Positions 11,156 to 19,274 of a DNA stretch of 64,000 nucleotides are shown here, in pieces. The translations under genes were made by a program, and so were the position numbers. This DNA comes from an uncultured Pelagibacteraceae bacterium (GTDB lineage: Bacteria > Pseudomonadota > Alphaproteobacteria > Pelagibacterales > Pelagibacteraceae): NCBI GenBank assembly GCA_902571055.1, contig CACGAM010000004.1, positions 1-64,000 on the forward strand, in the 5' to 3' direction. The notes below the pieces were generated by a model. It ran no database searches and was not told where the DNA came from. It saw only the letters and a list, made by a program, of their open reading frames with translations. Positions within the stretch are counted from its first letter, which is position 1; each line of letters starts with the position of its first letter.

Positions 11156-11287
11156 ATGGATATATTCTTATTAATTAATTTTTTAATAGTAGTTGGGTTA
11201 ATTATTTCAATATATGTATTATACAAAAATATCGATGTAATCAAAATTATACTAAACTATTGGAAAGATAAATTATTTGGAAAGTAA
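11156..11287 (+). CDS. candidate 43-aa single-pass membrane protein (not in supplied track)
   Basis: Read by hand: MDIFLLINFLIVVGLIISIYVLYKNIDVIKIILNYWKDKLFGK*; one hydrophobic helix plus basic tail; fills the gap between rmuC and hisG. Confidence 0.45.
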   Translation: MDIFLLINFLIVVGLIISIYVLYKNIDVIKIILNYWKDKLFGK

Positions 11288-11962
11288 TTTAATAAGATTT
11301 TTTAATCCCTTTTTTTTCTGACTTATTTTTGAGGTAAAAATACAGGCTTGTGACTTCAATATTTCTCCATCATTTAATACTCTTAATTTGTTAGCTTTTA
11401 AAGTTTGCCCTGAAGAAGTTATGTCACTTATGAATTCTGCAGTTCCTATGACAGGCATAAGTTCTGTGGCCCCTAAAGACTTAACAATTTGAAAGTTTGT
11501 TACACCTCTCTCATACAGAAATGATCTCGTTAGATTCGGATATTTAGTGCCAATCCTTACTAGAGTTTTATATTTCTTTCTAAACTCATCCGCCACCTCA
11601 TCCAAATCTAGTGTTGTAAAAAGATCAATATTTTCCTCTCTGACAGCAAGCACTAAATTAGCGTAACCGAATGATAGTCTTTTAACTAAATTAATTTTTT
11701 TTTGAACATTAATCTCTGATTCTTTTAAAAGATCGTACCCACTAATTCCTATATCTAAATTTCCAATTGACAATTGTTCAATTATTTCACGAGCGTGTAA
11801 AAATAAAACTCTTATATTTGACTTACCTTTTATTTTTCCAAATAAATCTCTTTCTCCTCTTTCAGAAAATATTTTTAATTTTCTTTTTCTTAATAGATTT
11901 TCTGTGAAGTTTTTCAATCTTCCTTTTGAGACAATTCCAATGTTTATGTTATCTTTATTCAT
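11273..11962 (-). CDS. hisG: ATP phosphoribosyltransferase catalytic subunit (short form)
   Basis: IGIVSKGRLKNFTENLL, GNLDIGISGYDLL, RIGTKYPNLTRSF; start taken at MNKDN. ORF track begins at 11989. Confidence 0.9.
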   Translation of the reverse strand: MNKDNINIGIVSKGRLKNFTENLLRKRKLKIFSERGERDLFGKIKGKSNIRVLFLHAREIIEQLSIGNLDIGISGYDLLKESEINVQKKINLVKRLSFGYANLVLAVREENIDLFTTLDLDEVADEFRKKYKTLVRIGTKYPNLTRSFLYERGVTNFQIVKSLGATELMPVIGTAEFISDITSSGQTLKANKLRVLNDGEILKSQACIFTSKISQKKKGLKNLIKLLSK

Positions 11963-13013
11963 AATTAGATAAATTGACCGCAGCACCAACTGCAGGTACC
12001 TTCTTTAAACCCAAATACTTGGATGTTAATTCATCAAACCTGCCGCCAGATATTAGATTAACAAATTTATTTTTCTTTTTAACGTCCAATGAAAATATGA
12101 GGGAATTGTAAAACTCAACTTCTCTACCTCTTCCAATCCTTGTTGAAAACTCAAATTTTGTGTTTTTTATTTTTAAATTTTTAATTGGAAAAAAATCTTT
12201 GTTTATGAAAATATTTAAATTATGCTTCTTAAAAAATTTATTTAATACATTTGGAGCATTATTTAATGAGCACTTTATTTTAAGAAATTCTTTAATTATT
12301 TTTGCACTTTTTTTTCCACTTTCTGACTGCCTAGGATCATTTATTTTACTTTCAAATCTTCTTATTATCTCTTTATAAGATCTACCATTAATTATTTTTT
12401 TTTGATTTAATTTTATCATTTTTGAATACATTTTTTTGTCGCCTGCTACTGTTACAGGATCTATATCCAAATTGCTTTCTAATCTTTTTAAAAGTTCAGA
12501 AAAGTATTTTTCATTCCAAAAGAATTTAATAAGCCTTTGCTTCCATCTTTGTGGAATTTGTAATTTATTAATAAGTAGTTCAAATAGTTTAAAATTACCA
12601 ATATTCAATTTAGAATTTCTATACTTAGATGACTTTAAAATTTTTAAAGATATGTCAATAATTTCTTTATCATCAATACTTTCATTCTTAGATGAAAATA
12701 TTTCCATTCCAATTTGCTTCACAACTACGTTTTTTTTATTATAAGATTTTCTAAATGCACTACCTGTATAAAAAACTTTTTCTTTTTTATTCGATTTACT
12801 TTGTGCATGTCTGATAACAGACGAAATAGTAAGGTCAGGTCTTAGTGAAAGCTCCTGTCCATCTGAATTATAAAAGGAGAATAGATATTTTTTGAAATTT
12901 TCTCCTGAACGTTGAAGTATAAACTTTGATTCAATAACTGGGTCCAGTTCTATGTGCTTAAAATATTTACCTTTAAGTATATTAAAAACTTTATTGTAAT
13001 TTTTTGATTTCAT
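11955..13013 (-). CDS. hisZ: ATP phosphoribosyltransferase regulatory subunit (HisRS paralogue)
   Basis: Class II aaRS-like fold (LRPDLTISSVIRHA; VNLISGGRFDELTSKYL); lies between hisS and a short-form hisG. Confidence 0.88.
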   Translation of the reverse strand: MKSKNYNKVFNILKGKYFKHIELDPVIESKFILQRSGENFKKYLFSFYNSDGQELSLRPDLTISSVIRHAQSKSNKKEKVFYTGSAFRKSYNKKNVVVKQIGMEIFSSKNESIDDKEIIDISLKILKSSKYRNSKLNIGNFKLFELLINKLQIPQRWKQRLIKFFWNEKYFSELLKRLESNLDIDPVTVAGDKKMYSKMIKLNQKKIINGRSYKEIIRRFESKINDPRQSESGKKSAKIIKEFLKIKCSLNNAPNVLNKFFKKHNLNIFINKDFFPIKNLKIKNTKFEFSTRIGRGREVEFYNSLIFSLDVKKKNKFVNLISGGRFDELTSKYLGLKKVPAVGAAVNLSNYE

Positions 13014-14376
13014 TAATTAAATTTTCTTTAGATACGGTAAATTGATTATTTTCAACTTCTGACTTAAGTTTTTTTATAGTTGCTTTATTTTTATCTATTT
13101 CATCTTGTCCACAAATTATTGCTAATGAAAAACCCTTCTTATCTGCATAAGCAAGTTGTTTCTTCATATTTTTGTTTGGATCAAGATATATCTCAGAATT
13201 AATATTGTTATCTCTTAATAAATTAACTATCGAATAGTACTCATCTAAATATTTTTCATCTAGGACAAGTACAAGAACACCATTTGAATTTAGATCTGAT
13301 TTATTTATTTGATTAAGTGCAAATACAAGCCTATCTACTCCGATAGACATTCCTGTTCCTTTAAAGTCCACACCTTTAAATCTTTTAATTAGGGAATTAT
13401 ATCTTCCACCGCTAGCACAAGAACCTATATCAATATCTTTGCCCTTGGCATTTTTTGTTTTGAAATTAAGGTTAGTCTCCCAACAGTTACCAGAATAATA
13501 TGCTAATCCCCTGACAATATTTAAATTTAATTTAATAAAATCAAGAAATTTACCTTTTGCCAAAATTTCAAATAATTTTTCAAGTTCTTCTATACCCTCT
13601 AAAGATAATTTATTTTTAATAGATTTTTTTAAATCGCTGATATCTTTGATCTGTATTAAGTCTAAGACCGCCTCTGTTTGCAGATTTGTTAAGTTTGCAC
13701 CTTTTGTTATTGCGCCACTTTCATCCTTTCTGCCTTCCTGAAGAAGATCTTTTACTCCTTGTAAACCTAGACGATCCAATTTATCAATCGCTCTTATAAC
13801 TTTTTTCTTTTGATAATCATTTATTTTAATATCAGAAAGTAAACCTTCTACAATTTTTCTGTTAGATACATTTATTTTAAATTGGCCTTTTGTTAATCCA
13901 CAACTTTTGAATGTATCAGCAATTATATTGCAAATCTCTCCATCTGCCTGTGCTTCATTGACGTTTCCTATTATATCAGCATCAAATTGCATAAATGATC
14001 TATATCTAGCATTGTCTGGTTTCTCTCTTCTAAATACATCTCCATATGCGTAACGCTTAAATGGAAAAACTAAATCTCTGTAGTTCTGAGCAACAAATCT
14101 TGCTAAAGGCGCACTCATATCGTACCTTAAAGTTAAAGATTCTTTCTCGTCTTTAAACGAGAAGACATCTGACATTTGGTTTTCTTCATCATTGGCTAGA
14201 AAAGATCCAATATTCGAACTTATTTCCATTGGTGGCGTTTCTAACGGCACAAATCCGTATTTAATAAAAGTGTCCTCTACCGTATTTAATATTTTTTTTT
14301 TGAGAGCTAACTCTACGCCCCATCTATCCCTAAAGCCTTTTGGCAAACTAGGTATTAAATTTTTATCTTTTTCCAT
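12991..14376 (-). CDS. hisS: histidyl-tRNA synthetase
   Basis: SLTLRYDMSAPLARFVA, YGDVFRREKPDNARYRSFMQFDADIIG, GGRYNSLI, GTGMSIGVDRLVFAL. Confidence 0.95.
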   Translation of the reverse strand: MEKDKNLIPSLPKGFRDRWGVELALKKKILNTVEDTFIKYGFVPLETPPMEISSNIGSFLANDEENQMSDVFSFKDEKESLTLRYDMSAPLARFVAQNYRDLVFPFKRYAYGDVFRREKPDNARYRSFMQFDADIIGNVNEAQADGEICNIIADTFKSCGLTKGQFKINVSNRKIVEGLLSDIKINDYQKKKVIRAIDKLDRLGLQGVKDLLQEGRKDESGAITKGANLTNLQTEAVLDLIQIKDISDLKKSIKNKLSLEGIEELEKLFEILAKGKFLDFIKLNLNIVRGLAYYSGNCWETNLNFKTKNAKGKDIDIGSCASGGRYNSLIKRFKGVDFKGTGMSIGVDRLVFALNQINKSDLNSNGVLVLVLDEKYLDEYYSIVNLLRDNNINSEIYLDPNKNMKKQLAYADKKGFSLAIICGQDEIDKNKATIKKLKSEVENNQFTVSKENLINEIKKLQ

Positions 14377-14380
14377 TTTT

Positions 14381-14455
14381 TGGTACTGCCGCTTGGAATT
14401 GCACCAAGATAGCCCGCTCCACAGGCGGGAGTAATAACTATTATACGACGGCAGC
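14381..14455 (-). tRNA. tRNA-His (GTG), CCA encoded
   Basis: Hand fold of the minus strand: acceptor GCTGCCG/CGGCAGT + A73 + CCA; anticodon arm CCCGC-CTGTGGA-GCGGG (GTG); T arm CTTGG-TGCAATT-CCAAG; D arm GTAT..TTAC. Adjacent to hisS. Confidence 0.85.
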
Positions 14456-14468
14456 GTCCTTTCTATAT

Positions 14469-14474
14469 TTTATA
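14469..14474 (-). promoter_or_regulatory. possible -10 element for tRNA-His/hisS unit
   Basis: Minus strand TATAAA about 13 nt upstream of tRNA position 1. AT-rich context weakens the call. Confidence 0.35.
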
Positions 14475-14625
14475 CTAATTATTATTAATTTTAAATTTAT
14501 AAAATGATTAAATTGCTAGCGTGCAGCCAGCATGAAAATGATGTCTGTGAAAATTACAAGTTTTTTGAACTTTTTTAATCATAAAGATTTCATAACATTT
14601 TTTTTTATAAATGCAACATCTTAAG

Positions 14626-14995: not shown

Positions 14996-15070
14996 TGGTG
15001 CCTCGGGAAGGATTCGCACCTCCGACACAAGCCTTTTCAGGGCTCTGCTCTACTCCTGAGCTACCGAGGC
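14996..15070 (-). tRNA. tRNA-Phe (GAA), CCA encoded
   Basis: Minus strand GCCTCGGTAGCTCAGGAGTAGAGCAGAGCCCTGAAAAGGCTTGTGTCGGAGGTGCGAATCCTTCCCGAGGCACCA; loop CTGAAAA. Confidence 0.95.
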
Positions 15071-19200: not shown

Positions 19201-19274
19201 GCCCTGATAGTTAAATGGTATAACAGATCCATGGTAAGGATCAATTTCCAGTTCAATTCTGGGTCAGGGCACCA
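19201..19274 (+). tRNA. tRNA-Thr (GGT), CCA encoded
   Basis: Acceptor GCCCTGA/TCAGGGC; anticodon arm GATCC-ATGGTAA-GGATC (GGT); T loop TTCAATT. Confidence 0.85.

What the first reader, a model, noticed from the sequence alone, without database searches (positions are those of the whole stretch)
11273..14455. tRNA-His abuts hisS and heads a tRNA-His-hisS-hisZ-hisG unit
On the minus strand the encoded CCA of tRNA-His (14381) is followed by 4 nt (AAAA) and then the hisS ATG (14376). There is no room for a Shine-Dalgarno outside the tRNA. hisZ (a HisRS paralogue that activates short-form HisG) overlaps hisS by 23 bp, and hisG overlaps hisZ. So the tRNA, its synthetase, the synthetase-like regulator and the first enzyme of histidine synthesis appear to share one transcript. 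Inference: 3' tRNA processing would release a nearly leaderless hisS mRNA, or RBS access would depend on tRNA folding, giving a route to couple tRNA-His, HisRS and histidine synthesis.
Basis: partly seen in the sequence, partly recalled or inferred. Interest (0 to 1): 0.75.

Follow-up and report, generated by a model that had tools for sequence, protein, structure and literature searches.

The report
tRNA-His fused to its synthetase gene
In SAR11-type ocean bacteria the only histidine tRNA gene sits four bases before the gene for the enzyme that charges it and seems to share one transcript with it; such tight packing is common in these compact genomes, but here the spacing and an upstream ribosome-binding-like motif have been kept while the tRNA itself was repeatedly swapped.

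Summary
Confirmed. tRNA-His (14381-14455, -) ends in an encoded CCA, then AAAA, then the hisS ATG (14376); hisZ overlaps hisS by 23 bp and hisG overlaps hisZ by 8 bp. The genome is a Pelagibacteraceae (SAR11) relative. All 88 genus genomes that keep the hisS start have the tRNA directly upstream; in 64 of 87 measured the ATG lies exactly 7 nt after A73, in 81 it lies 6-9 nt after. The outgroups sampled lack the abutment. A complete relative has only this one tRNA-His. One transcript is very likely (inferred, not shown).

The abutment itself is ordinary here: 7 of 32 tRNAs have an ATG within 12 nt, tRNA-Gln/cca keeps exactly 3 nt in 29 genomes, and only 13% of genes have an SD. What is special is (1) the cognate pairing, (2) an AGGA motif in the 5' leader just before the tRNA (63/87 genomes, versus 1/57 other tRNA leaders) and (3) frequent replacement of the tRNA body while leader and linker stay. 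Best reading: tRNA maturation frees an almost leaderless hisS mRNA. Boldest reading: the folded tRNA joins a split ribosome-binding site, as the hairpin does in E. coli thrS. Feedback regulation is untested.

The parts
14468..14477 (-). TAGTATAAAA, -10-like element (TATAAA 14469-14474) 13 nt upstream of the tRNA; predicted promoter of the unit
   Evidence: sequence; the same or a close variant (TATAAA/GATAAA) in the same place upstream of tRNA-His across the genus
14457..14460 (-). AGGA, SD-like motif in the predicted 5' leader, 1 nt before tRNA G1
   Evidence: SD core within 12 nt of tRNA-His in 63/87 genus genomes versus 1/57 other tRNA leaders
14381..14455 (-). tRNA-His(GUG) with encoded CCA; no G-1, G1.U72 and A73
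   Evidence: ARAGORN, Rfam RF00005; acceptor stem kept by compensatory changes in 31 distinct relatives
14377..14380 (-). AAAA linker between CCA and the hisS start
   Evidence: CCAAAAA then ATG in 59/87 relatives
12991..14376 (-). hisS, histidine--tRNA ligase, 461 aa
   Evidence: TIGR00442 340.7 bits, above cut-off
11955..13013 (-). hisZ, HisRS-like regulatory subunit of ATP phosphoribosyltransferase, 352 aa
   Evidence: NF008953 E 3.9e-74, TIGR00443 E 1.8e-27, both below curated cut-offs
11273..11962 (-). hisG, short-form ATP phosphoribosyltransferase (ATG start chosen here)
   Evidence: TIGR00070 164.8 bits, above cut-off; start from sequence

Best explanation
The sole tRNA-His gene heads a histidine unit, tRNA-His-hisS-hisZ-hisG, transcribed from a promoter whose start lies about 5-8 nt before the tRNA. 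Maturation cuts out the tRNA (RNase P at G1, a 3' nuclease at or near CCA) and leaves a hisS mRNA whose AUG is about 4 nt from its 5' end. That AUG is read without a neighbouring Shine-Dalgarno, as is usual in this lineage. The layout keeps tRNA-His, HisRS, HisZ and HisG at one transcriptional dose. Shown here: gene order, gap, conservation, low SD use, presence of RNase E. Inferred: the shared transcript, the processing order, leaderless initiation. Not shown: any feedback.
For: Gap and overlaps. -10-like TATAAA at a fixed place before the tRNA, and no terminator-like site between tRNA-Phe and hisS. tRNA directly upstream of hisS in all 88 genus genomes with the hisS start, and in genus g5 of the family with a 5-nt A linker. 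Only one tRNA-His in the complete relative G012, so this copy must be made into a working tRNA. SD cores upstream of only 13% of ATG starts in G012 against 3-7% background. Other tRNAs also abut ATGs: Gln-cca 3 nt in 29 genomes, and in G012 Glu 4, Pro 5, Leu 6 and 9, Gly 6. RNase E/G is present above cut-off in 5/5 genomes.
Against: No RNA data. RNase E could as well cut inside the AU-rich 5' end of hisS and destroy the message; a canonical RNase Z was found only as a weak match. Leaderless initiation would not explain the AGGA kept before the tRNA in most lineages.
Confidence: 0.58

Rival explanations
1. Split ribosome-binding site: the AGGA in the leader is the SD of hisS. The folded tRNA-His between it and the AUG brings the two together (effective spacing 8-13 nt), so unprocessed precursor is the translated form. 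RNase P cleavage, or HisRS bound to the tRNA part, would switch hisS off, giving feedback as in E. coli thrS.
For: SD core in the last 12 nt before tRNA-His in 63/87 genomes and in 20 of 31 distinct tRNA sequences, against 1/57 other tRNA leaders (Fisher P 2e-19 by genome, 5e-11 by tRNA sequence; rows are related, so these overstate). Flanks of GG are AGGA in 33 of 36 distinct cases. Effective spacing 8-13 nt overlaps the broad 3-13 nt spread of SD spacings in G012. Anti-SD intact. Motif present in the earliest-branching members of the genus. In three of the four measured long-linker genomes the linker itself holds an SD core, and in three the leader lacks one. E. coli thrS has a bipartite RBS interrupted by a hairpin that ThrRS binds (PMC3858243).
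Against: About a quarter of genomes lack the motif, including a whole subclade with the same 4-nt linker, and so does genus g5. The other tRNA-mRNA pairs do without it. The motif falls at the predicted transcription start, so it may be only partly transcribed. Loss with long linkers is not significant (P 0.06).
Confidence: 0.18
2. Neutral packing: the tRNA lies next to hisS by chance in a compact, syntenic genome, the gap is simply the minimum, and nothing regulatory follows.
For: Median codirectional CDS gap 2 nt; 22% of tRNAs against 19% of gene ends have an ATG within 12 nt; other tRNA-CDS neighbours are equally conserved.
Against: Length kept at hisS although the tRNA-Pro/CDS gap drifts over 3-7 nt; the downstream gene is the cognate synthetase, roughly 7/1350, or 0.5%, by chance (reckoned after the fact); leader motif specific to this tRNA.
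Confidence: 0.25
3. The GG of the leader pairs with the encoded CC of the CCA end, lengthening the acceptor stem and slowing RNase P, so the motif tunes tRNA maturation and not hisS translation.
For: MFE folds of several precursors pair leader GG with CC of CCA. Leader-RCCA pairing is a known anti-determinant of bacterial RNase P (PMC9433436).
Against: A pairing partner of ACCA would be UGGU, but the flanks are A on both sides, which suits an anti-SD. In PMC9433436 the effect comes mainly from positions -1 to -3, while here the GG is often 4-5 nt away.
Confidence: 0.08
4. hisS has its own promoter inside the tRNA or cspA region and is transcribed separately.
For: The tRNA D-arm of this species happens to contain TATAAT.
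Against: Relatives with other tRNA bodies lack it; the scan finds minus-strand promoter-like sites upstream of the tRNA but none inside it.
Confidence: 0.04

Closest known systems
E. coli thrS bipartite RBS with ThrRS autoregulation
   Same: A synthetase mRNA whose SD and AUG region is interrupted by an RNA element its own product recognises (PMC3858243)
   Different: There the element is a hairpin in the mRNA; here it is the real, sole tRNA-His. SD function and HisRS binding in the precursor are untested.
tRNA-mRNA operons and the mitochondrial tRNA punctuation model (general knowledge)
   Same: A tRNA placed directly before a coding sequence and cut out of a shared transcript
   Different: A free-living bacterium; only some tRNAs; linker of 3-4 nt conserved; the message encodes the cognate synthetase
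Alphaproteobacterial hisS-hisZ-hisG gene order (recalled; seen here in family f2)
   Same: The same order in the sister family
   Different: In family f2 tRNA-His is about 1.4-2.4 kb away, with an MFS transporter gene between in G025
G-1-less A73 tRNA-His and its HisRS in SAR11 (PMC3937112, PMC4284800)
   Same: A73 and no G-1, as described for SAR11 strains and not for HIMB59
   Different: The gene fusion and the swapping of tRNA bodies are not described in the papers read

Membership tests
tRNA-mRNA dicistronic operon | tRNA and CDS on one strand with no room for a promoter or terminator between | tested here: met
   4-nt gap; scan finds no terminator
tRNA-mRNA dicistronic operon | Shared transcript detected | not testable with these tools
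   no RNA data
Leaderless mRNA | 5' end of the mRNA at or within a few nt of the AUG | not testable with these tools
   would follow from 3' processing at CCA; not mapped
thrS-type split-RBS autoregulation | SD on the far side of a structured element, effective spacing compatible with initiation | tested here: inconclusive
   SD core in 63/87 leaders, effective spacing 8-13 nt; absent in about a quarter
thrS-type split-RBS autoregulation | Synthetase binds the element in the mRNA and represses | not testable with these tools
   needs binding and repression assays
T-box riboswitch | T-box leader upstream of the synthetase gene | tested here: not met
   Rfam scan of the window gives tRNA matches only
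Alphaproteobacterial G-1-less tRNA-His | A73 and no genomic G-1 | tested here: met
   A73 and G1.U72 in 31/31 distinct sequences; the -1 base is C here and mostly A or T in relatives; a minority (the GCCCTGG type) has G at -1 in the DNA

The most novel reading that the evidence does not exclude
A working tRNA doubles as the operator of its own synthetase gene: the folded precursor tRNA-His bridges an SD (5') and the hisS AUG (3'), and tRNA maturation or HisRS binding turns hisS translation off, so HisRS output follows the demand for tRNA-His. The layout tolerates exchange of the tRNA body because only the two ends of the tRNA matter.
Probability: 0.14. Interest if true: 0.85.

Novelty: new variant of a known kind. 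Interest (0 to 1): 0.47.

Why it matters
SAR11 cells are among the most abundant on Earth and have few known regulators. If a tRNA and its synthetase share one precursor, then every processing event sets the ratio of tRNA to enzyme, a simple control suited to a minimal genome. It also suggests that several SAR11 mRNAs are born by tRNA excision (tRNA-Gln-cca, tRNA-Leu-tig), a free-living parallel to mitochondrial tRNA punctuation that 5'-end data could test directly.

Tried and rejected
First took the genome for HIMB59; rejected because HIMB59 has ancestral C73/G-1 traits (PMC3937112) while this lineage has A73 and no conserved G-1, and record titles say Pelagibacteraceae. First pattern search used a fixed spacing one base too short and found nothing. 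T-box or other known leader RNA: none. Degenerate pseudo-tRNA or tRNA mimic: rejected, since it is the only tRNA-His in a complete genome, passes Rfam even where ARAGORN misses it, and keeps its acceptor stem through compensatory changes. Leaderless signature by TATAAT position upstream of ATGs in G012: no clear peak. Viral origin of tRNA-His alleles: no exact match in viral contigs; phage records give no match for the window's tRNA and only weak matches, mostly phage tRNA-Gln, for another allele. Prior description of the arrangement: none found in ten literature searches of open papers. The paper said to discuss co-transfer of tRNA-His and HisRS into SAR11 (Wang et al., cited in PMC3937112) could not be read, so the adjacency may already have been noted there.

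Full report
1. The observation. On the minus strand tRNA-His(GUG) runs 14455-14381, ends in ACCA, and is followed by AAAA and the ATG of hisS at 14376. hisS (12991-14376), hisZ (11955-13013) and hisG (11273-11962 from its ATG) overlap by 23 and 8 bp. Upstream lie cspA-like, tRNA-Phe, infA and hisD genes. The tRNA has G1.U72 and A73, and -1 is C, so it lacks G-1.

2. The organism. The nearest named records are single-cell genomes and MAGs titled uncultured Pelagibacteraceae, HisS 72-93% identical. A73 without G-1 fits SAR11 and not HIMB59 (PMC3937112; PMC4284800). One relative, G012, is a single 1,343,202-base contig of 28.5% GC with 32 tRNAs.

3. Conservation. Of 111 genus genomes 90 have hisS matches. 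For 88 of these the region around the hisS start was read, and in all of them tRNA-His is directly upstream (G077 by Rfam). In 87 the distance from A73 to ATG was measured: 7 nt in 64, 6-10 nt in 83, and 25-32 nt in four; the linker is CCAAAAA in 59. Genus g5 of the same family has a 5-nt A linker. The sister family has tRNA-His 1.4-2.4 kb away, with a transporter gene between in G025. None of 69 other alphaproteobacterial loci nor 30 class representatives has a tRNA-His near hisS within the flanks fetched. The abutment is thus, on present sampling, a trait of this family.

4. How unusual is it here? In G012 the median codirectional gap is 2 nt; 7 of 32 tRNAs have an ATG-started ORF within 12 nt, against 19% of gene ends. 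tRNA-Gln is followed after exactly 3 nt by the CCA-adding enzyme gene (named from its sequence motifs, not by a family search) in 29 genomes, while gaps between tRNA-Pro and its neighbour drift over 3-7 nt. SD cores occur upstream of 13% of ATG starts, against 3-7% background, though the anti-SD is intact. So the missing SD and the tight gap are ordinary; the fixed length and the cognate pairing are not fully explained by packing.

5. The leader motif. In 63 of 87 genomes an SD core lies within 12 nt 5' of tRNA-His, mostly AGGA 0 or 3 nt before G1; among 57 other tRNA leaders of two genomes there is one. On a HisS tree the motif is present in the earliest branch of the genus and its pattern needs 8 changes. 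If the tRNA fold is skipped, its distance to the AUG is 8-13 nt. This resembles E. coli thrS, whose bipartite RBS is interrupted by a hairpin that ThrRS recognises (PMC3858243). Alternatives are pairing of GG with the CCA end or a role in transcription start. Fifteen genomes have GCCCTGG-type tRNA; all but one of them lack the motif and still keep the tight linker, so the motif cannot be essential.

6. The tRNA is real, single and exchangeable. Thirty-one distinct tRNA-His sequences keep acceptor pairing through compensatory changes, with G1.U72, C2-G71 and A73 invariant. Yet close relatives differ strongly in it: G120/G121 have HisS 92% and tRNA 63% identical while the flanks are 88-96% identical; G003/G049 92% and 61%; and G114 carries a tRNA 97% identical to that of G004 (HisS 80%) behind a leader like that of G015 (HisS 98%). 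tRNA-Phe and tRNA-Thr(GGU), within 5 kb, are also very variable; most other tRNAs are 90-100% identical between G000 and G012. The body appears to have been swapped with sharp borders, leaving leader, linker and hisS, which suggests that the architecture, not the tRNA sequence, is under constraint.

7. Mechanism. I favour one transcript starting just 5' of the tRNA, excision of the tRNA, and SD-independent initiation on a nearly leaderless hisS mRNA. RNase E/G is clearly present; a canonical RNase Z is only weakly matched. Regulation by HisRS or by processing is plausible and untested. Folds of 52 distinct precursors give a mean acceptor-helix probability of 0.72 and an unpaired AUG of 0.81, compatible with either model.

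8. Limits. No transcript data; the transcription start is inferred from a -10-like element; gene starts in G012 come from a simple ORF rule; relatives are not independent; most genomes are incomplete; the HisS tree is a quick one. The arrangement may have been noted in a paper that could not be read.

Noticed in passing
14381-14455 and relatives L001-L193: The single tRNA-His gene is hypervariable: relatives with HisS 89-98% identical can have tRNA-His only 57-83% identical, while distant ones share nearly identical alleles; leader and linker are kept, as if the tRNA body were swapped precisely.
   Followed up: partly
14996-15070 and 19201-19274: tRNA-Phe and tRNA-Thr(GGU), both within 5 kb of tRNA-His, are also unusually variable between relatives, unlike most other tRNAs of the genome.
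   Followed up: partly
L307 (G012:C1:139712 onward) and L135 (G000:C1 near 64000): tRNA-Gln is followed after exactly 3 nt by the start of the CCA-adding enzyme gene in 29 genomes, a second pairing of a tRNA with a tRNA-maturation gene.
   Followed up: partly
14996-15070; also G012 tRNA-Val(GAC), tRNA-Phe and tRNA-Thr(GGT): Several tRNAs have non-canonical T-loops (TGCGAAT, AGCGTAA, TGCAAGT), with G in place of U55; some tRNA-His alleles share the AGCGTAA loop of tRNA-Val(GAC).
   Followed up: no
L014 (G022), L189 (G083), L185 (G116), L145 (G085): The genomes with long linkers carry a hairpin between the tRNA CCA and the hisS ATG, with different stem sequences, and in three the hairpin loop holds GGAG or AGGA.
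   Followed up: no
L003 (G017), L146 (G056), L184 (G053), L145 (G085): In four genomes the tRNA-His gene does not encode a proper CCA right after A73, unlike nearly all other tRNAs of the lineage, so CCA would have to be added.
   Followed up: no
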